47,401 nucleotides of DNA, taken from assembly GCA_016206925.1 (NCBI GenBank), contig JACQQS010000007.1, positions 1 through 47,401 of the forward strand, given 5' to 3'. Made by a program: the position numbers and the translations under genes. Below the pieces are notes generated by a model, which saw nothing but the letters and a program-made list of their open reading frames with translations, had not been told where the DNA came from and ran no database searches. Below are positions 59 through 44,000 of the stretch, one piece after another. Position 1 is the first letter of the stretch, and each line of letters opens with the position of its first letter. The stretch is from Candidatus Omnitrophota bacterium. GTDB taxonomy: Bacteria; Omnitrophota; Omnitrophia; Omnitrophales; JACQQS01.

Positions 59-118
59 GCCGTCTTTGAGACGGCTCACAACCGTCAAGCCACCCCGTTC
101 AGGGGTGGTGTATGACTT
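59..118 (+). mobile_element. Twin hairpins resembling an IS200/IS605-family right end
   Basis: There are two perfect hairpins in a row: GCCGTC/GACGGC at 59-64 and 70-75, and CACCCC/GGGGTG at 91-96 and 102-107. The second is embedded in an imperfect outer palindrome beginning GTCAAG and ending TATGAC. Known IS200/IS605 and TnpB elements end in short subterminal hairpins of this kind, and their omega RNA overlaps that end; I am relying on general resemblance, not a database match. If correct, an element has inserted at the 5' edge of the following open frame and supplied its first dozen or so codons. The left part of the element lies outside the window. Alternatively this is just a transcription terminator for an upstream gene, although no U-tract follows either stem. 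Confidence 0.35.
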
Positions 119-4784: not shown

Positions 4785-4819
4785 GCGCAAACGTTGAGAC
4801 TTTTTTAAAGCTTAAATCT

Positions 4820-4875
4820 GTCATTCCCGCGCAAGCGGGAATCTAAACTCTAGACCCCCGCTTTCGCGGGGGTGA
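4820..4875 (+). repeat. Class A palindromic repeat, intergenic copy
   Basis: This is the reference copy of a repeat that recurs inside the giant gene. It begins GTCATTCCCGC, folds into two hairpins (ATTCCCGC/GCGGGAAT and CCCCCGC/GCGGGGG) and ends GGTGAC, so its termini are inverted repeats. It carries no gene, as expected for a MITE- or REP-like element. It ends five bases before the GGGGAGG ribosome binding site of the giant gene. Confidence 0.85.
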
Positions 4876-4880
4876 CAATC

Positions 4881-4887: not shown

Positions 4888-4902
4888 TTGTTCTCACAGC
4901 CT

Positions 4903-5016
4903 ATGTCAAAGCGAAATCTGATAAGCGAAGCCCGAACAAGCGGGTGGAGGTTTCTGAGGACAACTGCCTCTGTCTTGGTTGTTGTCTTTACGTTTACCAC
5001 TGTGTCTTGGTCGGCA
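4903..5016 (+). other. Signal peptide or N-terminal membrane anchor
   Basis: After ATG 4903 come a basic segment (SKRN, later WRFLR), a hydrophobic core (ASVLVVVFTFTTV) and a small-residue site WSA followed by PFEP, fitting cleavage after residue 43. Export of at least the N-terminus is therefore expected. Because several enzyme modules downstream look cytosolic by function, the membrane topology of the whole chain matters and is unresolved. Confidence 0.75.
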
Positions 5017-17000: not shown

Positions 17001-20000
17001 TCTGAATCTTTCCGCTGATCCGCTTCTGGAACCGCAGATTTTCCGCGGCGTGGAATGGGTGGAAGGTCTTCGAACGCTTTACCATCGATTGTGGGATATG
17101 GATTACGACGGAGCCAATATGCCGCCGCCGCTTCTCTGGACATTCATTTACCATTCGCTTGCCAAGAAGAATTTGGGCAAGGCAAAGAAAGACCGCCGCC
17201 ACGCCATGGAATATTACGATGCGGCCATGATCGCTAAAATTCTGAACCGGGAAATCTCAAGAGCGGGCGAGCAGGGTAAAAGCACGCATATTTTCTTCTC
17301 GGGCGATCGTTTCCTTGCTCCAATAGTTTCTTCTTTCTTGAATAACTATTTCGAAGTGAGTGAACTCTTTGCCAAGAAGGGAGAATTCCTGCCGGAAGGT
17401 TATCCACGCGCCCACACGAAAGCTCAAGAGGTCGCCGAACAAGTTCCGGGAAGAAAGGAAAGGGTATTTCAAGCTTTAGGATTACAAAAAAGGTTCGATC
17501 CTCTCGCAAGAGGTTTTGGTGCTGCTGTTCCGCCGCCGTTCTATCAACCAGCTTTGGACTTAGCTAAAAATGCGGTTGAATACGGAGCCAATCCCTTACG
17601 CTCTGCTTACGAATCTGTCTCTGCTTTTTTGACGACCGATCCTCAAGTTACAGCCGTTCCCGAACGTGTGCAAACCATGACGGATTACTTTTCTACAAGC
17701 GTTTCCTTAGGCAAAGGTACGCTCATCGGTGTGATTGGCGTTGCAACGGCCGGTCTTGCGGTGTGGTTAGGGTTTAAAATTGCGCGAAAGTTTCCTAGGG
17801 TTTTAACCTTTGCAGAAAGTCTTGCCTTTCCAGTAGCTGCTTATTATTTGGGATCGACGCTGGCCATTTCCGGATTACCGCTTATCGCAATTCTCCTGAC
17901 ATCGGTAATGCCTCTTTTTAGTTTGATCTATGGCCTGGTAAAACGAGGCGAACATTCCAAGAGCTTGATTAGCAAATCAATTAACTACTCACTTACCTAC
18001 GGCGTATTGTCAGCATCTGTTTTGACCGGACTCTCGCTTTTGGCGCGTTATGGTTTGATTACAGCCTTGGCTGCGGCAGTGGCTGTCAAAATTTCGATTG
18101 TGCCCGTAGTTTTTCTCGGGCTGACTACATTCGCAGGTTTTCTGGGGAAAAATCTTAAGCCTATCACTCGAAACCTCTTTCTCAGATGGCCTGCTCTTGT
18201 CGCTTCCGTAGGATTTGCGCTTTATGCGTTTGGCGCTGTTTCTTTGACGGGAACATTTTTTGCAGTTTTAGCCGCAATTGCGTTTGTTCCTGCGGCGGTT
18301 TGGATCGCTCTGAAAGCGGCTTACTACACCCTTAAATTCCTCGTGACTCACCCATTTGGTGTAATGGTTCCGCTCGCGAGCGCCGCCAGCGCCGGGATAT
18401 TGGTGCTCGGCGGAACGGCTATTCTTTCAATCTGGCCGATCACGCTTACTGCCGTCGGTGCGTCTTCCTTGATTATTTCGGGTACACGCGCTTACATTAT
18501 TAAGCGGAATAATCGTCTCCCCACGTACCGCGATCTGCCGAAAGTTAAACAACGGGGGAGCAAGATTGCCTTTCTGCGCGTCGATCACAACACAGAGGAT
18601 AAGGTTGAAGGCAATATTCGAATTTTGGAAACGGTTCCCACAGCAATCGATCTTTGGCTGAAAGGTTACACGTTAATAGTTGCTTCTCATAACGGCCGGC
18701 CCAAAGGAAAGGTAACCAAGAAAGATTCGATGGAAAGAAATGCAATCGAGCTTCAGAAAAGAATTGATGAGGAAGTAGCCCGCAGAGGTTTAAAAGAAGG
18801 GCCTAAAGTTATTCTCTACAAAGGAAGTGTTACTGATAAAGGAGAGCGTGGAATAACAATTACCAGAGGCGACCTTGTACGAGGTCAGGTTAATTATCTC
18901 GAGAACCTTCGCTTCAACAAAGCCGAGGAAAATCACGGGCAGGAATTTGCAAAGGCTTTGGCGGAGCTTGGGGATGTTTACATCGACGACGCATTCAGCA
19001 CCGCTCACCGGGACAACACTTCAGTCTTCGATGTCGTGAATTATTTTGATACAGGCGTCTACGTCGGCGCGCTCATGGAAAAGGAGCTGAAAAAGCTCGA
19101 GCGTGTCAGAAAACGTCCGACCGCACTTATCTTTGGTGGCGGCCCCAAGATGGACGAGAAAATTCCGCAAATCCTCATGCTCCTAGGCGAATTAGGGGCC
19201 GACGGGAATTTGGTGCGCGAAGGTACCATGCCGGAGGGAAGCAAGATATTCATCGGGGGCGGGCCGACAACCGCATTTCTCCATGCGGCAGGCCATAAGG
19301 TAAAGACAAAAGGCAAAGTTTCACCTAAAGATTTGCGGCAGGCCGGCATGATTCTCCGGTTGGCGGAGTTGCGGGGTGTCCGCGTTGAAATGCCCACAGA
19401 TTTCGTTGTTTCCAAGGTCGATATCTTCGACAAGAAAGCTCCTACGGCGCTCAAAAATAATCCGCCCACAGAAGTTGTAACGCTTGATGATCTTTTGAGC
19501 GGTAAATACGCCGACTATTTTATCTACGACATCGGTCCCGAGACAGCGGCGCGCTATGCAAAACTCATCGGCAAACTCGGCAGGCGTGACAGTTTGTTCT
19601 GGAACGGTCCGCTGGGTGTTACGGAGTATGCCGGATTGGATAAAGGTTCGAGAACCGTGGCGCAGGCAGTTGCAGAAACCAAAGCCTTTACCGTAATCGG
19701 CGGAGGCGACACGGCCGACATGATCGATAAATTCGGTTTTCACGATAAGATCGACCACGTTTCAACCGGCGGAGGCGCTTCACAAACGCTTATTGGCGGC
19801 GGCACTTTATTTGCGGTTGAAGCCATTCGCAACTGGTGGAAAATTCGCGGCGCTCAAAAGCGCACGCATGGATTTTTGAGCATAGATAAGATCCTTGGTC
19901 TCCTTCGCGCAAGGTCGTACCGTACGATCGAAATGGGCGGCCAAAGTTACGCTTATTACGGATCGCGGCGGCTCAAGAACGGATTCCGCGTAGCCAAACT

Positions 20001-23000
20001 AGATGCGAAGTACAATACGGAATTCGATCAGAAATTTGGCGAACGTCTGGCGCGTGGCGAACGTTATGAAATTCTAATGGATAGAAACGGCGTGGCCGTA
20101 TCCATCCTGAGAGATAGTGACAAGGAATATCGCTTAGCCACCACATCCGCTCCGGGCATCGATTTAACCAACGATATTGATTTGAGAAGTTATGCGGGAA
20201 CCGTTCTCGAGTACGTCAATTTCACGGTAACAAAAAAGAAGCTTCAGCTACGCTGGACGGATACCGAAAATCCCCGTCTGCATAACCTGATTACCGACGG
20301 AAAATTTAAGTCAAATCCGGAAATCCCGAACATGTATGAATCCAAGCTCGCTCTTCCTGGAATTCGTGGTGATCAACGTAAACACGGCGATAAGACGTAC
20401 ACTACGGGCAAAGACGTCACTACGTTTGATCCGGTTTTCCAATTTGAATACCACGCCGAAGCTGTCGGAGGGAAGTCAGTCACGTTGGTGACGAAACCGT
20501 CGGATCAGCCGCAATCGGGTGGTTTTGAATTCCTGATACGTCCGACGACAACCGTTCTTCAAATAGGGGGTGGCACCATCGGCTTAAAGGCCGCTTACTG
20601 GGCGCTTGCCGACGGATTTAAAGTTGTGCTGGCCAACCGTTCACCCAGCGCGCAAGGTATAAATCCATTTAACGTTGGCATACCGATGATTTTTATTGCC
20701 GACTACACGCCGGGCAAAAATATGCCAAAGCAGAATGCCGCCATGCGCAGGCATTTCAAGGAAGCGGGAGTTGTTCTTGCGGGAGGGGAAAATTACGATG
20801 TTGAGAAATTCTTAAGCGGCGTTCCGCTTGAGGCCGGCTCCTACATTGCCGAAAAGCCTGCACTGGTCGACGAAGGGCTCGATAAAAAGTATAACCCCAG
20901 CGCGGCGGAATTAGCTGCGCTTCCAGCTGATCTGCGGGCCCGCACGGAGAAATATGTGGGGAAGACAAACACCCACGTACTGCTGAAAGAACTGCTTGAA
21001 AAATTTGACGTCCCCATCTTTATTCAAGGTTCCAACGAACCGGCCGATGCCGACGTGGGCATCGAAACCGTCTTCATGAATGCGGCAGGCCTGAGTTTTA
21101 AATTTCACACCTGGGTTAAGGATCTTAAGAAAAAACTCAAGGCCAAGGGGAGAAAAAAGCCGCTCGTGTTTTTCTGTCCGTCCTGTAATACAACAAACCG
21201 GATTAATGATGATGCCCTCTTTTTTGAAATCGAGAAAATCATAGGAAAGGGCAAGATAGCCTATATCGAGACTCACGTTAATACCATACGGCGTATCAGT
21301 GATACGGGGGGAGCGGAATGGGGTACTAAAGAGAGGGAAGGCGCCAAGTTTGAGGTAGGTTATCATCATGCGGAAGACGCTCTGGCGATTACCGAACAGA
21401 TAAAACTTTTTCATGCACACCCCGCTTGGTGGGCGGCCGGCATAGCATTACCCGTCACAGTTTATTTTCTAACAACTTCCGTTTTTGCTCTGGCCGGAAT
21501 ATCTTTTCTTGCATTGATGCTCGTTTCTTTCGTGCCTTTAGCTTATGCGCTTTATCGTTTGATTCGTCCCGACGACCGAAAGATCCGGTGGCTTCGCGAC
21601 AGTGATGGCAATGTGATTTCTTATAGAACAGATGCCACCTCGGGACCTCAGCATCACCACCATATTGGACATGCAGTTCACAAAATAGTTTTAAAGGATG
21701 GAACTACGGTACCACCTAAGGTTATGAAATTGGTCGTCGCACGAGCTCGTCGGCTGGCGCTCGTGTATTTTGACGGAAAATCATTTGATCCCACTAAGTA
21801 CCACACGGAAATCACCGAAAAGAAGAAAATCCGCCATCCATTCGTAGCTCCCATGTCGGTTATTGAAGATGTGGGTGGTGTGATTACGACGGATTATTTA
21901 ACGGAACAGGAGTCCAACGCAGTGCCCAATATTATTACAGCCATGGAAGGTGTCCTGGGCGGATTTCGTCCGCGGCAGATATCGCAAGGTCTTGAGAACG
22001 TGGACCAGGTGATGATGGTGGACCAATACAAAAAAATGGCGGAGGAAGCTCGTCCGGATCCGGAAGTTCCTCCCGTCGAGCAGAAATTCCGAGATCAGCT
22101 TAGAACGCCTGCTAAAAAATCCTTTAAGGGTCGCGTTCCGGATATCAAAGGAAAAATCGTAAATCCTTCCGTGCGCATTAAAGTTCCTGGAAAAACAAAG
22201 GCGGCGGGAGACAAGAAAGCCGCAAAGCCCGTTGATACTTTGTTCGGGACCAAGGGAGCAGAAATTCCATCTATTGCAAGGCCGCAGCCATTAAATGAAG
22301 AAGAACTCGACAAACTTCTCGAAAACGCACAAGTGGTTGATTCAACTGTACGTAAGCTTGTAGATCAACTTCGTGCAACCGGTTTGAATCACACTTGGGA
22401 TCCTCAGAGAGAAATATCCCGAGAAATGATGCAGGAAGCCGGCCGCCTGCCCGGACTGGCCGAGGACATTTCTGCGCTTACCAAGAATGCCGATGCTCAA
22501 AATCGAAAATCCGATGAAGCGCTTTCCCGGCTGGGTAGCCTTGAAAAAGATCTCGACTCCATTGCCGGCGCCGTAAGGAGCCGTTCGAATCAGCTTAAAG
22601 GCGGAGAGCTCGAAACGGTTGTTGCGCTCGAAGTTCTATTTAAGGAACTCCGGAAAACCTTTGAACATGTAAAAGCAGCAAGCGAACCGGATGTAGATCT
22701 TTCTTCTGCCCAGGGTCCTCCGGCCGAATTTCCTGCTTCCGAACTTCCTGCCGAGAAATCTCCTTCCGATAAATTAGTCAAAGTTTTATTCGATCCTGAA
22801 GCAACCGGCGTTGATAAAGACGGAAAATTAATCAGCCGCGATCAGCTCGAGAAATTCATCAAGGGAAATTTCAAAGATATCGAACTGAGCCTCCGTGCCG
22901 TCGAAGGCTCGCGCAAGTGGAGCACGCAGTACGATGACATCCGCGGCCGTATCCTACAAATTCTGGAAGCCGTTCATACGACTACGAAGGATAAAATTTG

Positions 23001-26000
23001 GAAAATGCTCGTCAGCTACGGAATTTCCCCTAAATATTGGCTTCCCATCATGCAAGTGCTAAAGGCAAAAGGCGAAATTGGGGACGTCATCGTTCAAGAA
23101 ATAAATCCTCATCACGATCTTACCTTAAGAGCCGACATTGAAACCAATACAAAATTGGGCAGGCCCACGATCACTGCTCTTGCTTTTACGGAAGGCGGAT
23201 ATCCGGACGGCGGTTATACAAACCAACCGCCAGTTCCGTGGAATGAAAAATTGCGGCGCGAGGCGCTCGCTCATTACGAAAGAACAGGCGAAATATTCCT
23301 TTATGCTCCGCACGCCGATCACGCTGTTATCTCGAAACTAACGGCCAAAGATATGAGAAAGATTCGTGAGCATCTGGAACAGCACGTAATAGCCGGAACG
23401 ACAGCAATGAATATTGATCCTTCACATTTACGTGATGAAAATGCGATGATCGAACGCGCCGAAGAAATTTCCCAAAGAATCGATGAAATTGTCGCACAAG
23501 ATCCGAGCCTTAGAATGGAATTTGGCGTGTTGGGATCTCTTGAAGATTATGTTGATTCCTTCTTAACCGGAGGAAAGATTCCGGGCGATGATAGCGAATC
23601 GGATGATGTGAATGATTTACTCAGCACCGGTACGTTGACAGAAAAAGAAGCGGTCACTATTGCTCATAATGAATTTAGGAAGACGGTGAGAGACCGTTAT
23701 GTAAGACTTCGCTCAATGTCGGAGGATATTACCGCTGAAGATGCCGGGTTTGATTTTGATTACGATCTGGCGCATTTTAGCATCGGTACAGTCGTCGAAG
23801 TCTTTAACGAATTCGCCAAAAGACTTCCGGAATGGATGATGTATGAGCTTGAGATCGGAGAGGTCCGCGCAGGCATTTTAGAGCCGACCAATGCCGCAGA
23901 AGTTGTTTATGCCTTTGAACGCGTAACTCCGGAGCGGCGCGATCTTATCGCCATTGCCGACGGCGGCGCGCATGGGGCCGTTTCGGGTGATCCGGAGGTT
24001 ATTCTTAAGACTTACGAGATCAAAGCGGAAGCTGAAAGACGGCTTAGAGCCCGCGGCGTACTGAAAGCCGGAGAAGAAATTGCATTTGCCAAACACGGCT
24101 CGAGCGGTCTTACCATGGAAGCGTTCAGCGCCTTGCCTCCCAAAGGAGTCCAGAAAATAAATTGGGCAACGATGGGTTCTATTCTTTTGATCACAGGCTT
24201 GGACAAGATCCGAAATGAATATCCCGAAGCAGGCGAGCTCTACGATAAATTTGTTGCAAAGGTGCTCGAACGGCATGGGGTAGCTGTCGATGAATCCGGA
24301 CTTCCCATGGCCGGGCAAACCGCGCGAACTATTCCATCAAATACTCTGCCTTCCTATGATCCTGAGTTGGCAGCAATCTTAAACCGTTGGTGGAAGGAAA
24401 AATATGGACTCCACCGGGTGCCAACCGATTGGGATCCGGACAAGAATGTTCCTGAAGTTTACAAAGCGCGTTTGATTAAATCGGCCCGGGATAATTTCCT
24501 TCTCAATGAATTAAAGCGGCAGCTCAAGTTTTTTGTTGATGATCTTAATAATCTTCCCGAGGATGCCAAGCGAAAACTTATCGACCGCGTTAAGTATTCT
24601 GAAGAAAAAGGCAGAGAAGGAATGTTTGCCGTCTTGAAGGCGCTCAATACTAAGCGATTGTCCGACGGTACTACCGAATCGCGCAATCTGGACGGGGTAA
24701 GTACGCGCATCGAGAAAATCCTGAATGAAACGGGCAAGCCGCGCGAGAAAACAGTGCGCTTAGTACCAAACGACATCGATGAAATTTTGGGAACGGTGGC
24801 CGAGCGTCTTGAAATTCCCTGGCAGCCGCCCATTCCAAGTATTGTTGAGGAAGGGGAAGACCTCAGCGGGGTACGTTTGACAGCCACCGGCGCAGGATTC
24901 GGTTCAGAGGCGGGCAAATTGGCGGCGTATACCAAAGCGCTTCAAAGTGCAAGCGGTCTTGAGTTAATTCCCACTTCACTTGCCGGTGCAGAGACAGATT
25001 TTTCTGCTTCCGCGACGACAAAACTTTTCCCACTTGAAGGGGAGACCGGCGGGGTACGTACAGCCGGCGATATGAAAAAGAGTTTTGCCGATCGCATGCC
25101 GCTTCCTTTGCGTTTCGGCCCTGGAAGTGCGCCCGTTTACATCATGAACCGCCACGCGCATCGTGTTGACTTTAAAGATTCGGCAACCTCTCTTAATCGT
25201 GCAAAAGCAGAAAGAATAGTTCCAGATCACACTGTTTTGGTTGCCGTTCCTATGCAGCCCGGCGAGGAATTTCCTCATACGATCGGCCATTTCCATCCGA
25301 CCGGAGAGTTCTATCAATTTTACGGAAAAACAATTCAGGTTCATCCCGATATCGACCGGAACACGGGCAAGATTCGCGGTGTTCGCGTTGTCATCAGCGA
25401 GCCCGGCGATATTGTTCCAACAGGCGCGCGCTACGGTCATGTCACCTACAACCTAAGCGAAACCCAGCGGCTGGATATGTTCGATTGGAATGCTTCTCAA
25501 GCGGATTCGGATTACGAACCTTATTGGTCAAAGGGAAGTCCAGTGATTGTTGTAAAAGGTAAAGATGGGAGAATTCACTGGCAATGGAATCCCGCCTACG
25601 CCGCTTCTGATTTTGATGAAAAAGTTTTCGGCGGAATTGTGCCAGGCACGGACAAGATTGAAGTGGTGCGCGTAAAGCGCGATCTCAGCCATTGGGAAAA
25701 ATTTGGTTTGAAGATTGGCCACGGCCGACCTCTCTACGATCAAGTAAACGACGGTCCATCCATAACGGCACTCGGTCAGATTATTCATAATCCCGATTTA
25801 TTTGAAAGCGCCTACGAAGCAAGCTTCGAGAAAGTGGATGCCAAGTCGCTTGAACCGCCTGCTTTGGAGGATTTCACCGTAGAAAAGACCTGGTTGAGCA
25901 GCTTGGCCGACCGTCTGATGACCTGGACCATCCGCATAGCCATAGCGATTTTAACAAGCCGCTTTTTCCATTGGATTGCCCCATGGGCGGCCGATTGGGT

Positions 26001-29000
26001 CATTGATAAAGCGGATAAGATTATTGAAACGGCGGCTGGTTGGTCGGAGGAAACCTTTACACCCCTCATCAGCGCCCTGGAGGAAACGAAAACGGGCAAA
26101 AGAGCCATCGATTTCTTCCGCTGGGTCCAAAAAAATACATCTGTTCAGGAGGATGCTACTGAAAGTTCTCCGTTTATTGACCATTTGAATCGCGGAGAAG
26201 TCCGCCTGATTTATAGCGCTGCGCTTTTGACTTTGCTTCGTGAAGAAGTGGCCAGGCGTCGCGGGGGACGCTCCGTCACGAAGATGCTGGGCTGGATACT
26301 GCCAAGCGACCGGGAAGTGGCCGCGAATGCTTTTAGCGATGTGCTGGATCGCGTGCGTGAAATTGAAAATCGCGGAACGGTAAATGCCGGTGAAATTCGA
26401 GTCATACAAGACGAGCTGAATAAGTCCGTAGAGGCATTGGGTCCGCTGGCCGGCGAGATCAAAGCTTTGGAGGAAGATCCGGCCGCCCTTACCATTGACC
26501 GCATGATTTCTCTGATTCGTCAGGCATTGATGTATGCGGAAGCTTTCAGAACCATCGATGAAATTAATGACGCCCTCGCGCGGAAGACGATGGGCGAGGA
26601 TAGTGATGCTTACAAAGCCTACACAAAGCGGATGGGCGAAATCGGTGAGGCCGTTGCAACATTGACCGAACGGCCCGTGGAATTGCTAAAGCGAAGCGGG
26701 CTCGGACTTCTCACGGGTGCTTTAAATATCGCCGAGCCTGGGAGAAAGTGGGGAACCCGCCTTAAAACCGTTCTTGAAACCGGCGCTGACCACTCGAAAC
26801 CCCTCAGCAAATCGGAATATTTCATGCTGAATTTGGTCAGGCGTTCTTTTGCGCTCAAGATGGCGGATCGAACCATTTTGCTTGCCGTTAAAGCCGTTCG
26901 CGGGACCAAAGAATATCTGGTTCCAAGCTTGAGTTTGGAATCCAGAATTCAAGCGCTTGCCATTGTAGACCAGGCGTCGCCGACGCGTTTCTATCAGCTT
27001 CAAAAAATAGCCAAAGAGATTCTTTATTACTTGACCGGCGGTCCGCTGAGCCGCTCCTTCTTTAAAGCAGCCAAGCGGCGAGCTCTTCTGACGGCAGCAC
27101 TAGGCGCAGGCGCATCGCTTGCCGCCATTTTCATCGGCATTGTCTGGAAAAAATTAGAACCTTCGGACATTCAAGATGTATACAAGGACAAGAGCAAGGC
27201 CGTCTATGATTCGGTTAAAAATTTAACGGCCGCAAGAAGCGTTAAAGATATCTATAAGGGCGTCAAAGAAGTTCTGGCGAGCGTTTTCCTCCCGCAGCAT
27301 TTGAAAGGAAAACTGTCGGGCCAGGTTCTAAATGTAGCGGCGCTTACACTGCTTGCCGGTGCGGTAACCACGGTTATCGTTTCGGTAGCGCGCATACTCA
27401 GCCGCGAGCTGAAATGGCATGCTGATGTGGATTCGCCGTCCAGCCGTGTCTTGGCGGAGTCCCGAGTAACTGACCAAGACAAGAATGAATTGGCTTTAAC
27501 CAAAAATCTTAGCGGCTTCCTCGAAAATATGATTAACGATCCCGATTCTACCCGCAGAAAACAGCGCCTTGCCATTTTACTCCAAGGCCGCGACGGCCTG
27601 CGCCAAGAGATCGCCGCTCTTGTCGATGCCCTTTATTCGCGGAAAAATGAAGCTGGCTTTGGTGCATCCGTCCCGGATCTGTCATTCCCGCGAAAGCGGG
27701 AATCCAGTCTGGGGCAGGCTCCAGTGGGAATCGAGTTCGTGGGCCCCCGCCTTCGCGGGGGCGACGTCCCTGTCGGATTTGGCGCCCAGGCTCCTATTCC
27801 TGAGGGTCGTATTAGTGATCGTGAGCTGGTTGAGACACACCGGGCTATCGTTGTAGTCCGAGCGACCAGCAAGGCCGAAGTCATATTGCAGGGCGTGACC
27901 GCTTGGCAGAGCGGCGCGCGTCTCATCGGAGTTTCGGTAACAACGCCGGATGCGGAGGATGCTATTGCGGAACTTAGAGATGTTGTAAAGGCAAGTCCGT
28001 ATAAGGTGTTGGTGGGAGCGGTTTCCATTACTGAGTTATCCGAGGCTCAACGAGTTCTCCAGAAGGGAGCGCAGTTTCTCTCGAGTTCGGTATTAATACC
28101 GCAGTTAATTTCGCTGTCAAAGCAGCACAAAGTGCTAAGCATAGTTGGCGCATTCAGTGAAGACGAGGTGCGGCAGGCCGTGGCATTGGGGACGGACTTT
28201 GTAAATTTATTCCCCTCCGGGATTGATACGGGAGATCTTGAAGTAGACCTTAAAACATATCTCAGGGTGCTGGAAGAGACACAAATGGCGCTGGGTTTCT
28301 TACATCAAACCGTTGCTTTTTACGATCCTAATGAAGCTGAACCCGGCGAAGTTATTGTAAGCACTCCCACGGATGTTTGGAGAGCGCTCCGAACCGGAAT
28401 TGATCCGGGGGCCGCTTTGCTTATCAAAAAGCCAGATCAAGTTGGTCTAAATCATGTGATGGCTATTGCCAGGGCGGTACCGGAAGCCAGGCTTATTCCC
28501 GGCGGCGCCATACGGCTGACACACCTAAGTGCCTTGGGTATGTTGCCGCATCCGGTTTCTACCGAAAGGAAATTAGCAAGCGCCGTCATGATCGGCGGTG
28601 CCATTTTTGGTGATCAACCTTCTACCGAAGAGGCCGCTGAAAGAATTAGAAGAGTGGCGCGTGCTCTTAAAAGTCCTACGGCAGCAGGTTTTGGAACAAG
28701 CAGGGAGATTCCGGATCCGGCTGAGTTTATAGGTGAAGATGATTTAGCGCTTCTTGAGCACGCGATTGCACAATCTTTGGATAGAGAAAGCCCTTATGTG
28801 GAAAGAATGGTGCGTACGGTTACGGGCCGGCAAATTTCTACGATCGAAGAGGCGCTTGCGGTGGGAGATGAAAACGGAAATGGGCCTTGGGCAACCGTTC
28901 GGAAAGTTTACCGGCAGGAAATTCCGCCAGCTCTTAAAGATGCCGTCGATGCAGAGGACAGTTTTGCCGAAGGTGTGCGCAGAAAATTGATGAGCGTTTA

Positions 29001-32000: not shown

Positions 32001-35000
32001 CCGCAGAGATTCTTTCTGGCGGGGCATTTATTTTTCGATTCGTTATCTAGCATTGCCCGCGTTAGCGCTCCTTTCCGGAATGTTCGCAGTAGGAGTTTTA
32101 GGCGCCAGTCTGGCGTTTGGAATCGGTGCGTTCGTTGTTGCGTTCTTCCTCCTGCTTCCCGCTGAATTAAATATTACCAATCAGGTCTCGAGCGGTTGGA
32201 TGAAATGGACGGCCGGAGCATTCCTGCCGGCAGCTCTCGGTACTCTCTACGCGTGGGCTGTCGTGGCGGGTGCGCTGCCGGCTACGTTTGCCGTTCTTGC
32301 TGTTTCTCCTGTTGCGGCAATCGCGATCGCCGTCGTACTGGCTTTGCCGTTCTTGATCAGCATAATCAAACTTATTAAACCATTGACTAACCTGTTTGTG
32401 GCAGCTCAAAAGGCCTTAGTTGATTTTGTGCATAATATTGCTCCGGTCAAATTCACTGTCTTTACCCTGCTTGCCGGATTGGCCGGATCGGTTTTTGCGG
32501 CTTTCACTTCAGCACCGATCGGCGCTCTCATGCTTGTTTCGGCATCGGCGTTCGTACTTCTTTATCTGGCTGATTGGGCCGGAAGGAATTATTTCACTCA
32601 TATTGAAAAACAATCGATTTGGCGTCGCATGGCGGAGCCGCTTGGATTTTTCGCCGGCTCACAAGCACTGGCTTTTTCATCTGTGCCTTTAAGTGCTTTA
32701 GCTGCGGCTGCTGCCGGAATGAGCTGGCTTGGCTGGCTGACCCCGGTTCTTTCGGGTTTGGCTTTAGTCGCCGCTTTACCGATAGTCACAGGTTTTTTAA
32801 CGGTTTTAGGCATTTTGCCTGCGTTGATTATTGTTCTCGGGTATGCATACCAAAAGTCACAAATTCTCCTTAATGCGATTGGAATGAAATCACCCGCAAA
32901 GCGCACGGCCGCTTACATTTTACTGGGCGTAGCGGCTTTATTTTCCGTCACCGGCGTGGGTGTTCTTTTGACAGCTTTTGTTCCCGCGATCGTCGGAGGA
33001 TCTGTGGTTGCGAAAGTCCTTACCTCTTTGGTGGCCGCTCATTATTTTCTGCACGGCGGAGTTTTCCATCCGGAAATGCTCCTGCTTATTCCCGTGATCG
33101 CCAAACTTTTGCGGTTGTACGATCGGCAGCCCTGGTCCAAGTTTGTTCTTTATCTAACACTCACCGCCGTATTTGGCGGGGTCACCGTCGGTCTCTTAGG
33201 ATATTACGTTTATGGTCTTCAATATTTACTTGGTGTTAGCCAAATAGCGCCCGCTTTAGGCGGTGTTCAGTGGCCCCACATTATGGAAGGAGCATTCGTT
33301 GCGGTTGCAGGCCTCTATCTCGTTTCCAAATCCGGCCATTGGCTTTACCACCGTTATTTTGCGCCGATACGCCCAATTTATCTGCTCGGCCGTTACACAC
33401 GTCCGATGCCGGTCGGCCTGGAAAAAAGCTTAAAGGAAGCCACGCTTCAAATGGCCCGCTTTATTAATGACCGGGACAAATTCAACGACCTTTACGGCCC
33501 CTTCATAGAGGATTTAAGGACACACCAGGCCGACCTTCCGGAAGCCGCGAAGTTTTACATAAATCATTATCTGAGTCACCCGAAAGCAGAATACCGGATG
33601 CTTGCCGTTGATATTCTCGATGAAATTTACGGCGAACTGGGTAAGTTTGACCTGGCTACGCTCCAGGAAGTCGACCGTGCGCTCGCACGCAGATTAAAGG
33701 AAGAAAGCGATCTGGACATTCTAAAACTTCTGGCCGGCGTTTTGAAAAACCACGGCCGCGAGAATTTGGTTGCCGATGTCATGTATGAACGGCTGGTTAA
33801 AGCTCGGAATAAAATGGATGTCACCCCCGCGAAAGCGGGGACCCACGGCACATGGATTCCCGCTTCCGCGGGAATGACACAGCAGCCGGAAGATGCCGAG
33901 AAGAATTTCCAAGGGACTTACGCCATTCTGAACATAGCCGGCATGCTTTCGGCCGGCGCGATTAAACATATTGGCAGTCAGGATGTTCAGGGTGTATCGA
34001 AATCAAAATTAAGTACTGAACTGGAATGGTTTGTGCGGAACGCACGTCTTAAGAAACCGGCGGGGCTTATCCTTCGTCACCGCGCATTTGCCGCCCTCCA
34101 GCAGATCGAACGTGCTCAAAAAACCGAGCAAGCCGAACAAAAAGCTAAGAAAGAGAATAGAAAACCTACCCAAAAGGAACTTAAAGACGCACTTAAACCC
34201 AGCCCAACTAACGCTTCTCTTGAAAGAGAGTATCGCCACGAATTAGAACAAGGCCGCGCCGAAGAAATCAAGGCTTACGCTCGTTCTCTCGAAGGTCTTG
34301 ATCCCAGCTTAATCCGCATGATCGATATAAAAGTGGTTAAACGTTACGGAAAATTCAAGCAAAATTCGGGCTCCATCGAAAATCTGCCGAGCACGATTCT
34401 TGGGGTCATTTTAGCCGTTGCGGCTACGCGCCGTTTTCATAACAATTTCAACAATCCTTTCACGAAAAAACCCGCCGATGGCGCCGCTTCAAAAGCAATT
34501 ATCGAAGGTGCCAACCAGGAAGGGCGGCTTGCCGCAAGAAGTGTAGTGGCCGAAGGGTATCGTGACGATGCTCCCACCGTTACGCCGGGTTTGAGGCTGG
34601 GCGGGGCTTGGGTCTATTTCCGCCGGAAGAGTATCGATCGGGTAGAAGCCGACTCGGCCACTGATCCGCTGGAGCTAACACAAGCCGAGCTCAAGATTTT
34701 AATATTGAACCAGATTAACATCTTTGGGTTGGGCCAGAAGGGAAAAGTTTTGGAGGCGCCCGATCTTCACGCGCTTTTGTTTGTCGGACCTAAGGGCGCT
34801 CGCGTCGATATCGGCATCAAGGAAGATCCGATTACCGGCGAAGCAACCGCCGACTTTAGGTTAAAAGAAAATCTGCTGGAAGAAGCGCGCGTTCGAGGTA
34901 AAGATGTTTCCGAGCTTCACAATCTGGTTTTGCTGCGTGAAAGAAATTATGAACTGGTTGGTCAGGCTTTGGCGTTTGTTCATCAAGCCAAGAAGAACCG

Positions 35001-38000
35001 TTCTCTGGCAGGACAAATGGCCGGCGCTATCAGACAAGGGCTTCAAATTCGGAGTCGTGCGCGGGGAGAGCTCATCAAGCAAGGTGCCGACGAAAGCGAT
35101 CAGGATTTTCTGAAGCGCGCGATGGCATATGTAGTAAATCGCATCGAGCGGACGGGAACATATACATTGCGGGATGAAGAAGGGAGAAAGCTCCTTACCT
35201 TTGTGATGGACGGAGATCTTACGCCCGTTTTGGCTGTTCATGCGGGTAAGCTTGACGGTGTCTTTGGTGTTACGGCGCTACCCGAAGCCGTTTTGCGCGC
35301 CATGCTTTCGAAGGGCAAGGACTTCGAGTATGTCGCTGTAATGTCTTCCTATGAAATGATGCGAAAACTTCCCAAAGGTTTAGGCTTCACGAAATTGTTT
35401 GCGCTTTACCCCTATGAAGAAGTTGAGCTCCTGGCGGATGCCGGTTTTACGCATCCGGCCATTGTCGAGCTTAAGCGTGCAAACGATATGACGATTGAAA
35501 ATGTGACTCAAGTTCTGCAAAATCATTTAGGCCGGGTTTCTGCCGTATTAGAACAAGCCATTCGGGACAGCGCCGATGAAAAGACGGCAACGCATTTCAA
35601 AAAATTGAGAGACAAACAAAAAGTACCGGCCGGGGAATTAAGAAAATTGGCCAGGCAAATCGTCAATACAACCGAGCTTCGCAAGTGGACCACGAAATAC
35701 AGCTCCTGGGACCCCCAGTCTGAGAAACTGGCGGGCGGAAACGACGGCGTGGTTTACATCGGCGCCACGAAGCGCAATCAATTCATTCCCGGCATGAATG
35801 TGGAGCCGAGAATCGAGCTGGGTCCCGCAGGCATTCCAGGCGTTTACACGTACCGGATTACGGAGAGCGGGGATTCGGGCCGCGGAGTCGTTTATGAAAT
35901 TACGATGGAGACAAGGCTCGCCGATCTTCTGAGACATGAAAGCGAGTACCGGGCGAAATGGGGCAAGGCCCGCTTCGCTTTTGAAGTAGGAAAAGCTTAT
36001 CTGGCCGAAGCCAACGGCACGCTTGCCGGATTTGAAATGTTTAACCGCGCCGAAGAAGAATTGGTCAAGGCCGAGCGGTTGACACTAAAAACGCTGCGTA
36101 GCCAGGGCGTCCCGCCCCAGATTGAATTCGCGGGCCAAGATGCCTCGCCTACGCGCGCGAGGGATTTTGAAAATGAAATATTCCTGCGTGAAATTCGGGC
36201 GGAGAAACTTTTACTCGAAGCAAAGAAAGCCATTTTAGGATTAAACCGGGAAGTCCAGGATGTCGATCAAGCCAATCAACGGGCCGAGGATATTTTGGGA
36301 CATGCGCTGGCGCTTGTTCCGACCCATGAAGAAGCCCGTTCGCTTCATACCCAGCTTTTGACCTATCACGGCAAGCGGAAACCGGCATTCAGAACGAAGG
36401 GCATTGAGAAGGAATTCGACGGCTCATTCCTAATCCATCCGGAAATCCTGCCCGTCCGGAGCGCAGCTGAAATTAATCGGGCGTGGAAGGAAGGTATTGA
36501 TCGAGGTGACACGCACTTTTTAATCCGGGTCCCGGCAGCGGATGCGCTAACCATCAATACTTTGGTTGACGGCATTGACGAAAATATTATTCGGGATACT
36601 TCACGCACCGTTTTCTTCTGGGAAGAACCTTCTAATATAAGTCAGGAAGGACAGCTGAAGAAGTCGGACGCGGAAACTACGAATGAGTCCATGGGTCGCA
36701 TCCGCGTACTCTTGGCAGAACGGTTTGGAGAAGCTTACGCAAAGCAGGTTCGTCTGGCCACGGGCGGGAGCATGAGCAGTATTAATGCCGAAGAGTTTGC
36801 GCGCCAGGAGCATATCGATATCCTTGTTCCGGGTACCAGTTCAAGAACCTCCATAGAATTTGCGGATATTGCCAAAGCGGTAGCTTCCGTGCCCTCGACG
36901 AGCGGAAGACGGAAAGGTGTAATTGGCGTTTGGAAAGGGAAAGTGCAGAAATATCGTTTTGGTCCGTGGCTTGAGCGAGCTGTCAAAGCGGGTCTTGATC
37001 TTAACGCCCTAGACATATGGATCGTTCCGGGAGTAGACCGGCGCCGTCTCATTAATGTCAACAAATACGCCGCCGAACTTGAGGGCGCGCGCCTAAGCGA
37101 TGAACGCCTGCCCCTGGTTTTGCCGCATGATTTAGATCTTACCCAAATGCGCGATGCTCTCGATGAGCTTTTGACCGAAGCTGAACTTATTCTTTGGCAG
37201 TACAAGCGCCGTGAAAAAGAACTGGTGATCAAGAAGAAGGCGGACGGAACTTCCGTTACGAATGCTGATCTTGACATCCAGACAAAACTGCTCGAGCTAA
37301 TCAAAGCGCACCCCCTGCTTTCCAAAGCGCGCATTATTTCAGAAGAGGGGATGGATGATGAACGGATTAAGAAAATCAACGAAGAAAATGCTCATTCTGA
37401 TTGGACCATTGTTCTAGATGAGATCGACGGTACCAATAACTTTATCCGCTGGATCGGCGGTGAAAAATCGCGGACACCTTCGAAAGTTCAGGGATCCGGC
37501 ATAGCGCTCGGTCTGCTTTTTAGAGGCGAGCCCCTCATTCACACATTTTTAAGCCCCGATCTGGATATCCCCGGCGAAGAGGGCGGCATCCGCGCCGTGG
37601 CCGTTCGCGGTCAAGGCGTAACGGTCAACGGAAGACTGGTACAAATGGCCGATGATTTTGATCCCAAGACGGCGCAAAGCCACATTCGCTTTAGCAGCCG
37701 CGTTAAAAGAAGTAAATCCATGCAGGAAAAGATAAAGGCGGTGCGCAAGGCTTTTCCGAACAGGAACCAACTCCTAGGCACTGCGGCGTCGGCCATACAA
37801 ATTGCGGCAAGCGGTACGTTTAATCTGCCGGCCAGGCTTGTGATAACAACGGACGGATATATTTGGGATGAATTAAACATGTTCTTTATTGAAGAGACAG
37901 GCGGGCAGATTATTCGTCTGGAGGATGGTCAGCCGTGGCGGTTTTCGCGCTCGATGCTTGATCAGGTGGCGGACGGGAAAAGATTGCCTGGATACATTGC

Positions 38001-41000
38001 AGGATCGCCAAAGGCGGTAGCTTATGCGGCCAAAGTGTTCGGGCTTCCCCAGCCGGCTAGAAGCCGGGCCGAGAGGTCGGCGCTTGAAGGCCGAAGAGAA
38101 AATATACCTCCCCATATCTTCCGTCAATACGACATCCGGGGCGACGTAACCAAAAACGAAATTACCGTAGAGGATGCCGCGCTATTCGGTGAATCCATAG
38201 CGCACCGCTTGCTTGAGCAGGAGCAGCCCGGCAGTTCCGCGGATAAGCCGTGGTTCCTGCTCACCGGTGATGAACGGCCCGTAAACCGGCTGCTTGTCGA
38301 TGCTTTTGCCAAATCACTCAGCGAGCATGGAATAAATGTCGAGTTTACGCGCGAATATGTACCGACGCCTGTTTCCCACAGGCGCCAGCTTTTAGGAAAT
38401 ACAAAGCAGGGGAGACGGTATGTAGGGCGCGGCCAGGCTACGGCTTCTCATCTCGCGCGCTGGATTTTTGGCGGTTTTAAATTGGAGCTCTTCATCAACG
38501 GGGAGTGGGTTCCTTTTGCCGGCGATGATTTAAGGGATCTGTATCACAGAATTAAAGAGACGCGCGTGCACGATGAGCCGGAAGGCCGCCGAGGGAAGCA
38601 GGAAGAAATTGCCGACGTATTGCCGGGATATCAAGAGCAGATCATCCAGCGATTTGGAAAAGTACTGAGAGAAGCTGCAAAACGATACAAGATTTTGACC
38701 GATCACGGAAACGGGACCACTGGAGTTCTCGCGGAAATCCTAAGGAATTCCGGCGTTGACGTCACTACGCAAAATGAGTTAGCCGATCCCAATTCCAAAA
38801 TTATTGCCGATCCCATGAGGCTTGAAGCTCAGGTACGATTTACTCAAGCATTGCTTGCTCTGAAGGGCACGCCATCCGAGCGCGATTTGGGTGTAGCGTT
38901 TGACTCTGATGGAGACAGGCATCGTCTCATAGATGAGCGGGGGAAGGACTTGAAACCTGTTGTGATCGGGGCGGCCCTTTATCACAATTTGTTTGAGAAG
39001 CATAAGCGGTTTCTTACGCATGATAAATTAGCCAAGGCAGGAATTGCTGTAAACATCGGCTTGGACAGCCGCATGCCCAATCAGATTTTCGATTTGATCA
39101 ATCAGCATATTGAACAGGGTTACCAGTTAAAAATTAAAGACATTGAGTCCGGCCAGCCGGCGGTTAAACGGTATTTAAAGGATGAGGTGAGAAGGCTTAA
39201 GAAAGCCACCCAGGAAATTCCGATTCTGAGGGACGACCCGGAGATAAAGCGGCTCTTCGCAGCGTTCCTGGAAGATTTCTTCGCATTCGAAGTTTTGGGC
39301 CACTTTGACTTCCTGCCTTTTGCCGATCGGCCCGGCCTCGAAGCGGAACCGGTTGATGACGCCATGTATACATTCCTGAAGGAGCTGGAGATACTGACCA
39401 GCGCGCCGGCTGGAACGAAGATAAGCGAATTTTTCAAGCCTTTCGCACCGGCTTCCATTGCTTCCGACACCTTTATCGATGATTTTCGAATCGATTCTCC
39501 AGACGGTTTCAAGAAAGAAATTGCCGAGTCCCTGACCCGCTCGATTGAAGGCGGCCACGTCTCATTTAAACAGCGGGTTGCCTCCGTTAAGAAGTACCAG
39601 GATGGTGTGCGCGTCAACTTTGAAGATCGCAGCTGGGTAGTTCTGCGTTATTCCAATACCGAGCCCAAGCTTGCGCTGGCTTTGGAAGGCCCGAGCAACA
39701 AGCGGTTGGCTGAATTGATTGGCGAAGTTTTGCAATTGCTTGAACCGTTCCGCCAGCAGAATAAAGTCGGCAAGCGGGAGCGCGGCGGGACGGAACTTTC
39801 TCTGGACGCGCTCCGCACTTTGCAAAGCGAGAGAGCGGTTCGAGCCCATGCCGAAGAGAATGCCCGGTTAAAAGTGAAAGATAAAGCGCCCCGCGGAAAA
39901 GTGATCGGAAAAGCTCCCGAGCGCCGCATTTTGAAGCTGAGCGACCTTTCATGGGAAAAGAACCCCAAACAGCGCGCGTATTATATCCGCCTGGCCATCG
40001 AAGCTTTCCATAAAGGCATGGTCATATTGAATCCTCTTCTAGCCGGCGCGAGCGCCCGCATGCGTGACGCGAAAAGTCTCGACCAGGTTCCGGAAGAGCT
40101 TCTGCGGCATTATCCACGCTCGGTTCTTGAGTCGATCGAATACAAAGCGTTCATGCCGGCCGCAGTCGTGGATGGCGCACCGCTGACATTTTTGGATGTC
40201 ATTTTTATGAATATTGCCAATTTTCAGAAACAAATCGGCGTGGATAACATCCCCATTACACCTCTTGCTAATCCGCGTAACATCGAGGAACTCGAAGCTT
40301 ATTTTGACAAGTTGGGAAGATGGGGTATTCATCCCGAAAATGTGCAACCGTATTTGCAGCCGCTTGTGCCGAGATTTGATGATCAGGGGCGGTTGACGGA
40401 CACCCTCGCCCCCGAGGGGCATGGTGAATCTCTGCATCAATTTGTAGCAAGCGGGCTCGTTTTGAAATTTATGAAGAGTAGTTCACGCAAAGATCGGCCC
40501 GTTATTTACACATGGCAAGTGGATAATCCTGGCGGAGGACTTGATGAAAACGCGCTTTTCGAAATCGGGTACTTTTTGTCGTTGAGAAACAGGAAACTGT
40601 CACTGCGCGGCCGGCCTGACGTGCTGTATATTGCAGCCCGCCGACCGGAAGAAGGGCAAGGTGCTGTGGGCGGCGGTATGGTAACTTGGAAGTCCGGCAC
40701 TTTGAGGAGGAAGCAAGCCATCGTTGCAGAAGACGATCAATTGAGCGGGAGAACGGATATCAACGTACGAAGCTTGTTGGCTAATACCGGGTCACGCATT
40801 GCAAGCTTGAGCATTTTTGGCAAGCATTACGCGCCTGAAGAGACATTTTTTGAATTGCAAGAGATGCGAGATGCAAGCCTGCGTGATCGCGAACTGGTGA
40901 AAATTGCAGACAGCGGACGGGCGCGATTCTCACGAAAAGCAAGCACGCGCGAAGGCGGAACGGTTATCGAAACGCGCGGGCATGATATTGTGACTGCCGA

Positions 41001-44000
41001 GCCTCTTCACGGGCAGATTGTGACAGCAGTTGTCCAGACAACTTCGATCGATGAAATACGTGATGTTGCAGATGAGAAAGCGCGCAGCAGGGCCATTAGA
41101 GATGTTGGTTTTATTCCCAACAAGGATTTTGGCGATGTGAGCAGAAATTTTAAAATTATCAACGAACGTGCGGCCTATTTGACCAAAGGCGACTTGCTCA
41201 GTCCCCAGGCCAAAGCCCTCGCCGATGAAATTTCTTCCGGCTCAAAAGGCTTTGGTTCTGCTGAAATTGCTCCGACCGCCGGATTTGGGGTAGAGGCCGT
41301 GAGCAGCGGAGAACCGCTTGCAATACGGTCGCTTGACGATGTCCAGGCCATAAGCGTTCTCCAGGAAATTATCAGTCGTAAGTCGGGAGATAGAATTTCT
41401 CTGAGGGAAGCACAAGCTCAATTACTGGAACGGGTGGCGAAACTTCAGCGTGAATTAAAAACTTCCATACAGGTGCCTCTCGGCATGTTTGATAGAACGG
41501 ATGACTTGCTTCTTGCAGTACTTACAGACAAAGGATCCAAGCAAAGGCATGAGATTACCCTTACACAACTGTTACGTTCCTTTGCCAATCCAGCTATTGA
41601 TGCGGCCCTTTCGATTAAGCCGCGGGTCTTGATTGGGTTGAGCGGAGCAGCGGGCGGCGGGAAAACCACCATAACCCGCAAGGTAAACCGCTGGCTCGAA
41701 GCACATTATCCGAGTGTCAAGGTCCGGGATTTCTCTTTTGATGATTTCCTGATCGATCCGGAAGATCGCGATCCCACAAAAAGGCACAGCGAATATATGG
41801 AGGACAAGGTTTCTATGGACCGGTATGTTGATTTTGTTGATGCGCTCAGAAGAAACGAACGCGCGACAAAGCCCATTTACGACACAACCGGCAGGGGCCG
41901 GCTGAAATTTGGCTTGGTACACAAAGACAAAGGCCAAACCCTCACCATATTTAATGGCTACCGTACTATTTTTATCGAACCTCTCGACAATGGAAGATTC
42001 AATTTGAACGAAATTTGGAAGCGAAGTCATGAGCCTGATTTGAATGTGACGGAACAAAGCGGCAAGCCGTATTTGAATGTGAAATCGACCGAGACATTTG
42101 TATCGGGTACGACTCCGATCCGGCTGGAACGTTTAAAAGACAAATCGTTTCGAATTACCATTCGGGAGTCTGTTTTTCATGTCCGCTACACGGATACCGG
42201 AGTATTCCTGGATATTGAAGGGGAGAATCCCGTTCAGCTTAGTGAGAAAGCAAAAGTCGAAGCGCTCGAGGTCTGGAATCCTGTTAAACCCGGAGAAAAG
42301 CAGATCGTAAACGGCGAGGGCGCTTTAATTCTGGTATCGGACAGGCGCGATCCCAAAATCTGGGACCTTACGGTGAGCATCAATGTGTCGGCGCGAGTGC
42401 GTAATTACAGGAGAGTGAAGCGGTCCCTTCAGCGGCAGATGCCTTGGGACGAGATCGACAAACAGGCCGAATTATTCTGGCAGAGGACCCTTACCGAAGA
42501 TCTGCCGGTGCATGAATTGGGTTGGCAGGCTTTTGAGACACGCGGTACTGCCACCTTGCGTAGGACGGATAGCGGTATTCCCCTTCATAGGCATGTGGAG
42601 GTCAACGGCCTTACGCTATCGGAGCAGATTTTCCGAAACGATGTTTATGGCCGACGTACCATCGGGGAAGAAGAAATATTCACGACACATGGAATTGATC
42701 TTCGCCGCATCTTAAGCGACAGCGCCAAAGCGGGAGAACAAACGCTCATTGATTGGATTGAATCCGTACGCCAGCGCGCAGAAACAGAAAGGAAACTGCT
42801 TAGAGACCCAAGGCCATTTCCCGGCGAGCCAGACCTTGAAACAAGAGAACGCTTTGAACGATATTTTGGAGGCACGTTCAGAACGCTCGCCCTCGGTCAG
42901 TATCTACTGCTTAAGTTCGAACTTTCATCCCAGGGCGGGACCGGCTATCTTGATCCCGATACCGAAGCGCATTTGAGAAATATCTTAAGGCGTACGCAGG
43001 GCCTTTTTGCAGGTGGACAGATTTTGGATTTATCGAACCGATTAAAAGGAAAACTGCGGTATCGGGCTCTGGAAGAAGTTGCTGAAAGACGCGGTAATTT
43101 CCAGGAAAGGGATCATGAAGTCGATCTCCGGCATGTTTTCATCATGAACCAGCTTCCTTTCATTGAAGGAAAGCTAAACCAGTTAAGCGGCCGGTACGAG
43201 GAACTTCTCCGGCAAGCCGGTGCAGAAAATGCTCAAAAAGCTCAGGCGAAGCTTGGGGAAGCACAAGAGATCATCGATCAATTTTTTGACGTTCAGTACA
43301 ACCTGTGGAGGCTCGGCATTGTAGATGTCGCACCGGATTTTGCGCGGCGGTATGGTTTGGGTACTCATCACGGAGCGCTGACCGTACAGTCGGTTGCGCC
43401 GGGAAGCCTGGTTGTGGATGATGAGAATTTGGAGCAAAAGCTGGAGGTGATCGTGCAAGAAAACAAACAGCGTCCCTTGCCCGAACCGGATAAGGATGAG
43501 CAGTTGGAAGGCTACGATAAACTGGAGGGATTCCAGAAACGGTTTATTTTTAATGCACGCACGGGAGAAAGTTATTTCAAACGGATTCCAAAAGCCTTTC
43601 GCCCGTATTACGTCAGGCAAATCCTGCAGCGTGTTCCCGTTGATTTTGAGGAGATGAAAGTCCGATACGGTTTTAGAAGGATTTGGGAAGAGGCTCTTAA
43701 AAATGGCACAGCCGAGCATTTTCAAAATTCGGGGGTCTCTTCTGCCCGTACAGATTACCACCGGATTAGCTACATCGAAGGTGAGCTGGCGCATCATAAC
43801 GTAGCGGTTCTGAGCAGGCTATTTTTAGAAACGTTGGGCCAAAGCGTCGAGCGTCCCGGCACGCCGCCTCTGGTATGGTCGGTGCTTTACGGGATGTCGC
43901 TTTCACAGGATCCCAATGACGCGCTTTTCGCTCTCGCTGATATTTTTTATCATCGCTTAAGCGGTGATTCTCTTTGGCTTGAACGGGAAAAAGTTTCTCA

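What the first reader, a model, noticed from the sequence alone, without database searches (positions are those of the whole stretch)
18541..42460. Gluconeogenesis to UDP-glucose encoded on one giant polypeptide
Read N to C, the domains are PGK, GAPDH, class II aldolase, (cupin PGI), KDPG-aldolase-like, TIM half, GlpX half, TIM half, IMPase/FBPase-like, PGM/PMM, UDPGP-family and uridine-kinase-like. Apart from PGI coming early, this is close to the order of gluconeogenesis from 3-phosphoglycerate to UDP-glucose, with the kinase able to feed UTP. Motifs and most catalytic residues are seen directly. That they act together, or channel intermediates, is inference. I know of no described protein with this content.
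Basis: partly seen in the sequence, partly recalled or inferred. Interest (0 to 1): 0.95.

Follow-up and report, generated by a model that had tools for sequence, protein, structure and literature searches.

The report
Exported gluconeogenesis on one giant protein
One bacterial gene encodes a 13,398-residue protein that carries recognisable enzymes for the steps from 3-phosphoglycerate to glucose-1-phosphate, and because it starts like an exported protein, is almost free of cysteine and has relatives with export-like signals, it is likely to run a second copy of this core pathway outside the cytoplasm, an arrangement of which I found no report.

The parts
4888..45084 (+). giant ORF, 13,398 aa; likely start ATG at 4903
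4903..5019 (+). signal-peptide-like N-terminus MSKRNLISEARTSGWRFLRTTASVLVVVFTFTTVSWSAP
   Evidence: hydropathy 2.09 against at most 0.99 in 29 stand-alone PGKs; own heuristic, no trained predictor
5119..6603 (+). N-terminal head domain (IQDxHxNYEAQ ... GGFHS), EreC/ChaN/Tiki-like fold
17719..18477 (+). cluster of 9 transmembrane-like helices before PGK
   Evidence: hydropathy only
18562..19800 (+). phosphoglycerate kinase, 13 of 13 scored catalytic positions kept
20545..22047 (+). type II (archaeal-type) GAPDH
21184..21186 (+). GAPDH nucleophile Cys5433 (PSCNTT), one of 3 Cys in the protein
21415..21567 (+). hydrophobic helical hairpin inserted inside the GAPDH domain
23065..24267 (+). class II fructose-bisphosphate aldolase (Pfam match 23836-24222)
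25168..25542 (+). cupin glucose-6-phosphate isomerase
27832..28233 (+). KDPG/KHG-aldolase-like domain, probably inactive
   Evidence: loss of catalytic Lys judged by eye against a recalled motif
31534..31869 (+). TIM C-half, catalytic Glu lost (LYRP)
32038..33198 (+). cluster of 12 transmembrane-like helices
   Evidence: hydropathy only
34465..34974 (+). GlpX-type fructose bisphosphatase, partial match
36325..37137 (+). circularly permuted triosephosphate isomerase (H in YHGKR, E in WEEP, K in GVWKG)
37138..37923 (+). inositol monophosphatase / FBPase-like phosphatase
38116..39732 (+). phosphoglucomutase/phosphomannomutase
39865..41217 (+). UDPGP-like segment (motif only, unconfirmed)
41629..41892 (+). 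P-loop kinase, uridine-kinase-like (sub-threshold)
6826..44256 (+). recurrent joint peptide xGFGx; GFG codons start at 6826, 12340, 17512, 24895, 27655, 27775, 28687, 31486, 41248, 41281, 44248; none inside an enzyme domain
66..4568 (+). upstream ORF, 1500 aa, no Cys, two GFG motifs, no family over cut-off

Best explanation
This is a 13,398-residue, almost cysteine-free polypeptide with a signal-peptide-like start that carries PGK, GAPDH, class II aldolase, cupin PGI, TIM, IMPase/FBPase-like and PGM domains with key catalytic residues kept, and it is predicted to be exported and held to a membrane by helical hairpins, where it would likely convert 3-phosphoglycerate to glucose phosphates outside the cytoplasm. 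SHOWN by sequence: the frame, the domains, the kept residues, the cysteine depletion, separate ordinary gap-pgk-tpi genes, and relatives with the same enzyme classes behind signal-like N-termini, fused to different degrees. INFERRED: Sec export; that large domains lie on the outer side with hairpins as tethers; that the enzymes are active; the gluconeogenic direction (FBPase-type phosphatases and PGM, no PFK found in this protein); use of 3-phosphoglycerate, ATP and NAD(P)H from a host, prey or the cell's own periplasm; possible cutting at the xGFGx joints.
For: Domains. PGK catalytic positions 13/13 against 55/93 other invariant positions (P 0.002); over ten embedded or exported PGKs 110/127 against 500/886. 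3 Cys in 13,398 aa against about 128 expected from 9 ordinary genes of the same genome. Two of the 3 are in FFCPSCNTT; all 3 Cys of the 14,650-aa G001 giant and both of the 8,448-aa G025 frame are in GAPDH active-site motifs; nucleophile kept in 11 of 11 large GAPDH frames examined and in all 4 GAPDH-bearing proteins of the database search. Signal-like N-termini in 20 of 27 distinct genes with a glycolytic-family match and a closed 5' end, and in 0 of 29 stand-alone PGKs. Database search (capped at 7,994 scored candidates): 11 of 15 PGK-bearing proteins of 1,155-3,675 aa have such a start and 0.06-0.52% Cys; the other 4 lack it and have 1.06-1.69%. Own gap-pgk-tpi cluster. Different lineages fill steps with unrelated families: GAPDH I or II, aldolase class II or DeoC type, FBPase GlpX/IMPase or PFK, PGI cupin or classical.
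Against: No expression, localisation or activity data. No trained signal-peptide predictor was available. 7 of 27 testable genes show no signal-like start: a stand-alone enolase, two frames with masked bases near the start (G042, G214), two that directly follow another long frame (G183, G056:C7), a short iPGM frame of G222, and G043 without explanation. Cys depletion is not universal: G128 0.66%, G183 1.14 and 0.82%, G056:C7 0.64%, P0001 0.64%. Positive charges outside the helix pairs, read naively, would put the large domains in the cytoplasm; 15-residue windows overlap the next helix, so I count this as uninformative. Embedded PGKs evolve very fast (end branches 2-8.9 against a median of 0.34), and those of G001 and G025 lost the D and N of RVDFN. 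TIM half 1 and the KDPG domain look dead. An ATP/ADP translocase family is in the genome but not enriched in carriers (my tally: 8 of 15 against 24 of 41). G001, 79% complete, showed no PGK match at the threshold and no stand-alone GAPDH over cut-off, so its giant may be its only copy. No ATP source outside the cytoplasm is known.
Confidence: 0.57

Rival explanations
1. A cytoplasmic, membrane-bound metabolon: the N-terminus is an uncleaved anchor, the domains face the cytosol, and fusion keeps the enzymes together for substrate channelling.
For: ATP and NAD(P)H are available there; charges flanking the hairpins fit the positive-inside rule if read naively; 7 of 27 testable relatives lack a signal-like start.
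Against: Cysteine depletion of the whole chain; four signal-bearing relatives (G056:C54, G222, G054, G058) with none or one further hydrophobic helix; ordinary gap-pgk-tpi genes exist.
Confidence: 0.17
2. A structural coat or adhesin protein that absorbed enzyme genes: the domains are inert modules.
For: Fast evolution; dead TIM half and KDPG domain; Omnitrophota giants are proposed to be surface or adhesion proteins (passages of PMC10066038).
Against: Catalytic residues kept above other invariant positions; GAPDH Cys kept where nearly every other Cys is gone; function replaced by non-homologous families.
Confidence: 0.15
3. A polyprotein: it is cut at the recurrent joint peptides (xGFGx here; R[SA]EVR in G001, GARLA in P0002, KPASSDL in P0001) into separate exported enzymes. 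This can hold together with the best explanation.
For: Joints are over-represented (11 GFG against a shuffled mean of 3.2, maximum 10) and avoid domains: 2 of 38 inside in three proteins against 10.9 expected; codons vary between copies; relatives have separate ORFs for the same enzymes.
Against: No protease was identified; motifs differ between lineages; GFG also occurs in other Cys-free ORFs of the genome, so it may be a general linker. Domain limits were set by me; P for the window alone is 0.023, for G001 and P0002 alone about 0.07 each.
Confidence: 0.25
4. An assembly chimera or a chance open frame.
For: Draft genome in 87 contigs, 86% complete.
Against: 13,398 sense codons with coding GC periodicity; giants with a similar order in separately assembled genomes.
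Confidence: 0.01

Closest known systems
Giant ORFs of Omnitrophota (Seymour et al. 2023, PMC10066038; passages seen)
   Same: Same phylum, ORFs over 20 kb, transmembrane helices, proposed extracellular location
   Different: The passages describe few annotated domains, adhesion or polysaccharide degradation; my term search in that text found no 'phosphoglycerate', 'gluconeogenesis' or 'fusion'
Bifunctional PGK-TIM fusion (NCBIfam NF010569 model, matched by parts of G222 and G025; the Thermotoga example is recalled)
   Same: Glycolytic enzymes fused on one chain
   Different: Two enzymes; as recalled, cytosolic
AROM-type pentafunctional pathway proteins (recalled)
   Same: Consecutive pathway enzymes on one polypeptide
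   Different: As recalled cytosolic, about 1,500 aa, no export signal or membrane hairpins
Surface 'moonlighting' GAPDH and enolase of bacteria (recalled; one related abstract in the listing)
   Same: Glycolytic enzymes outside the cell
   Different: As recalled these are single cytosolic enzymes without signal peptides, not a duplicated pathway
EreC / ChaN / HopBA1 / Tiki superfamily
   Different: Large helical insertion, heads giant proteins, function unknown

Membership tests
Phosphoglycerate kinase | Pfam PF00162 over cut-off | tested here: met
   261.7 bits against 27
Phosphoglycerate kinase | substrate and nucleotide site residues | tested here: met
   13 of 13 scored positions kept; AHR Arg and GxxE Glu not scored there, seen kept in the alignment to 1php
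Phosphoglycerate kinase | kinase activity | not testable with these tools
   needs purified domain
GAPDH, type II | curated profile match | tested here: not met
   no Pfam or NCBIfam GAPDH match; therefore called a divergent relative by alignment and fold, not a profile-defined member
GAPDH, type II | SCNTT nucleophile, RR.D, HH..D, QES.VPN | tested here: met
   alignment with 28 type II sequences
GAPDH, type II | fold | tested here: met
Triosephosphate isomerase (second copy) | Pfam PF00121 | tested here: met
   28.8 bits against 20.1, C-half only
Triosephosphate isomerase (second copy) | native strand order | tested here: not met
   beta-1 motif with Lys lies after the C-terminus; permuted own TIM scores 20.1 against 15.9 bits
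Triosephosphate isomerase (second copy) | Lys, His, Glu | tested here: inconclusive
   all three placed by a low-identity alignment
Class II FBP aldolase | PF01116 and metal ligands | tested here: met
   36.7 bits against 25.5; HADH and both HG shared with G001; role of ligands recalled
Cupin PGI | PF06560 and HxH...E...H | tested here: met
   26.5 bits against 20.7; both His pairs invariant in six sequences; the Glu is read by eye and is not invariant (G025)
UDPGP pyrophosphorylase | profile match | tested here: not met
   not filed as a member
Omnitrophota giant ORFs | ORF over 20 kb in an Omnitrophota genome | tested here: met
   40.2 kb; same-order and same-phylum contigs match by length to records named Omnitrophota
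Exported protein (Sec) | signal peptide | tested here: inconclusive
   own hydropathy and cleavage-like motif score only

The most novel reading that the evidence does not exclude
Omnitrophota run a complete second glycolytic/gluconeogenic pathway outside the cytoplasm, on Cys-poor exported multi-enzyme proteins assembled independently in different lineages from non-orthologous enzymes, and in this genome fused into one membrane-tethered 1.5-MDa protein: a central-carbon metabolic machine of the cell surface.
Probability: 0.48. Interest if true: 0.98.

Novelty: categorically new. Interest (0 to 1): 0.93.

Why it matters
Central carbon metabolism is taken to be a cytoplasmic affair, or to sit in an organelle. 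A duplicated, exported pathway on giant proteins would overturn that for one phylum, would give a testable function to a class of Omnitrophota giant proteins whose role is called poorly understood (PMC10066038, passages), and would raise direct questions: where ATP and NAD(P)H come from outside the cell, whether prey or host metabolites are the substrate, and how a 13,398-residue enzyme chain is secreted and folded. The kept GAPDH cysteine in otherwise nearly Cys-free giants makes activity directly testable.

Tried and rejected
Chance frame or chimera: rejected (13,398 sense codons; similar giants elsewhere). G005:C43 '24,209-aa frame': a run of masked N, dropped before counting. ATP/ADP translocase as the ATP source: present in the genome and in 32 of 56 genomes, but no association with carriers. 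Topology from charges: uninformative. PDB sequence searches for GAPDH, aldolase, PGI and UDPGP gave no significant true match, and IMPase none at E 0.001. Foldseek found nothing for the head domain at E 0.001; the second look gave EreC/ChaN. One origin of embedded PGKs: neither shown nor excluded, long branches. Class II aldolase was found only in the giant of this genome, but other aldolase classes were not searched and the assembly is 86% complete, so I draw nothing from it. Close orthologues for dN/dS: none found (nearest genomes are other families of the same order). Literature: searches of an open-access library without preprints; passages of three papers seen, none read whole; the West-Roberts preprint on giant genes was seen only as a reference.
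Full report
THE FRAME. The window is contig C55 of a 2.01-Mb, 87-contig, 86%-complete genome. Its main feature is one + strand frame, 4888-45084, 13,398 aa, stop only at the end, with coding GC periodicity. The genome itself is unnamed; contigs of same-order and same-phylum genomes match by length to records named Candidatus Omnitrophota (L103 = G031:C60, same order; L143 = G053:C58, L095 = G054:C111, L097 = G056:C54, same phylum; kinship).

TIM. The first 'half' has lost the catalytic Glu. The second reads H, E, phosphate loops and then the beta-1 'NWK'-like motif (GVWKG), that is, circularly permuted; the same permuted order is seen in G048, G222 and G035 and, by the position of NWK alone, in P0059, whereas G025 and G001 have the native order. 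The evidence in the window itself is modest (20.1 against 15.9 bits).

CATALYTIC RESIDUES. PGK: 13 of 13 scored positions in the window. Over ten embedded or exported PGKs 110 of 127, against 500 of 886 at other columns invariant in 30 stand-alone PGKs (Fisher P 5e-12). The cells are not independent, and two copies (G001, G025) lost D and N of RVDFN. PGM keeps the Ser, DGDR and SNTEP motifs against 1k35. Aldolase HADH and HG motifs are shared with G001, the PGI histidines with five relatives. Which residues are catalytic is recalled from family knowledge.

CYSTEINE. Three Cys in 13,398 aa; 9 ordinary genes in a fetched stretch of the same genome have 29 in 3,032 (two overlapping spurious frames left out), so about 128 would be expected. 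Two of the three are in FFCPSCNTT of GAPDH. In the G001 giant (14,650 aa, 3 Cys) all are in GAPDH motifs; in the G025 frame (8,448 aa, 2 Cys) both are. In 11 large frames with a GAPDH domain the nucleophile is present in 11 (in G043 the motif is SCTTT, seen by eye); one further frame, G046:C264, below the cut-off, was not examined. The 4 GAPDH-bearing proteins of the database search (P0055, P0056, P0059, P0066) keep it too. Against this, several relatives have ordinary or middling Cys contents: G128 0.66%, G183 1.14 and 0.82%, G056:C7 0.64%, P0001 0.64%.

RELATIVES. PGK lies in frames of 800 aa or more in 7 of 58 genomes (masked G005 left out); GAPDH in frames of 2,000 aa or more in 9 of 56 (the window's own GAPDH is not detected by that family); cupin PGI in 36 of 384 genomes, of which 14 have it in frames of 800 aa or more (the window's own PGI is missed by that search). 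Contents: G025 PGK-GAPDH-DeoC-type aldolase-PGI-GlpX-TIM; G001 TIM-...-PGK-GAPDH-GAPDH-PGI-aldolase-aldolase-TIM-PGM; G048 PFK-TIM-enolase-PGK-PPDK-PGM; G056 PPDK-PGK-iPGM-enolase; G222 neighbouring ORFs PPDK / PGI-TIM-GAPDH-PGK / TIM-enolase. The protein database adds P0002 (head domain, PGI, FBPase, a weak PEP-synthase-like match, PGK) and 11 smaller proteins, 10 of them with more than one enzyme (only the 7,994 best candidates were scored). The same step is filled by unrelated families in different lineages, which points to selection on the pathway.

EXPORT. My score is simple: a hydrophobic 12-mer behind a positive start and before a small-x-small motif. Of 39 fetched frames with a glycolytic-family match, 11 are open at the 5' end and cannot be tested; the other 28 are 27 distinct genes (L103 is a cut copy of G031). 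20 of 27 score at least 2.09; 7 do not: a 440-aa stand-alone enolase (G214), two frames with masked bases near the start (G042, G214), two lying directly behind another long frame (G183, G056:C7), a 342-aa iPGM frame (G222) and G043. All 29 stand-alone Omnitrophota PGKs score at most 0.99 or nothing. P0001 scores 3.19 and P0002 1.82. In the database set 11 of 15 have such a start with 0.06-0.52% Cys, and 4 of 15 (two fungal) have neither (a looser score). Start codons were not verified. The genome also holds an ordinary gap-pgk-tpi cluster at C38 and enolase at C54.

HEAD DOMAIN AND JOINTS. The first 500 residues after the signal-like start form a domain found in 113 of 236 phylum genomes sampled, often heading frames of 1,000-35,000 aa (list cut), with an EreC/ChaN/Tiki-like core. 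Joint peptides (xGFGx) occur 11 times, none inside a domain (P 0.023); with two other proteins 2 of 38 against 10.9 expected. Four copies of a dispersed repeat sit in frame in the giant.

READING. An exported, membrane-tethered multi-enzyme, possibly processed, most simply gluconeogenic in this genome because it has phosphatase-type domains and no PFK was found. Direction, substrates, energy source and activity are not shown.

Noticed in passing
window 6658-6710, 27677-27706, 33819-33879, 44374-44431 and intergenic 4819-4877; L046:11389-11446: A dispersed repeat is inserted in frame four times in the giant, with copies upstream of the giant and of the genome's gap gene.
   Followed up: partly
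G001 and G042, P0001, P0002: Each lineage has its own recurrent joint peptide: R[SA]EVR, KPASSDLG/KPEAAN, GARLA.
   Followed up: partly
L050-L052 (G183:C14): An 11,663-aa frame with eight to nine repeats of a unit containing ILYHELISHI, an HExxH-like motif.
   Followed up: no
G000:C65:26892-27869: ATP/ADP translocase family match in a 921-aa frame, longer than the domain.
   Followed up: no
loci L096, L122, L126, L127, L130-L134, L137, L139-L141, L144: The head domain also occurs in records named Elusimicrobia, Endomicrobiales, Firestonebacteria, FCPU426 and Auribacter.
   Followed up: no
L154 (G000:C17): A second large frame of this genome (3,584 aa, open at the 3' end) with the same head domain and no Cys at all.
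   Followed up: no
window 45147-46466 (-) and 46597-47346 (+): AAA_14/DUF4143 ATPase gene and an unknown small ORF downstream of the giant.
   Followed up: no
L121, Candidatus Omnitrophus magneticus SKK-01; L053-L054 (G001:C8, 5,231-aa frame): ORFs with signal-like start and head domain plus a weak PGM match (L121) or an iPGM match (G001).
   Followed up: no
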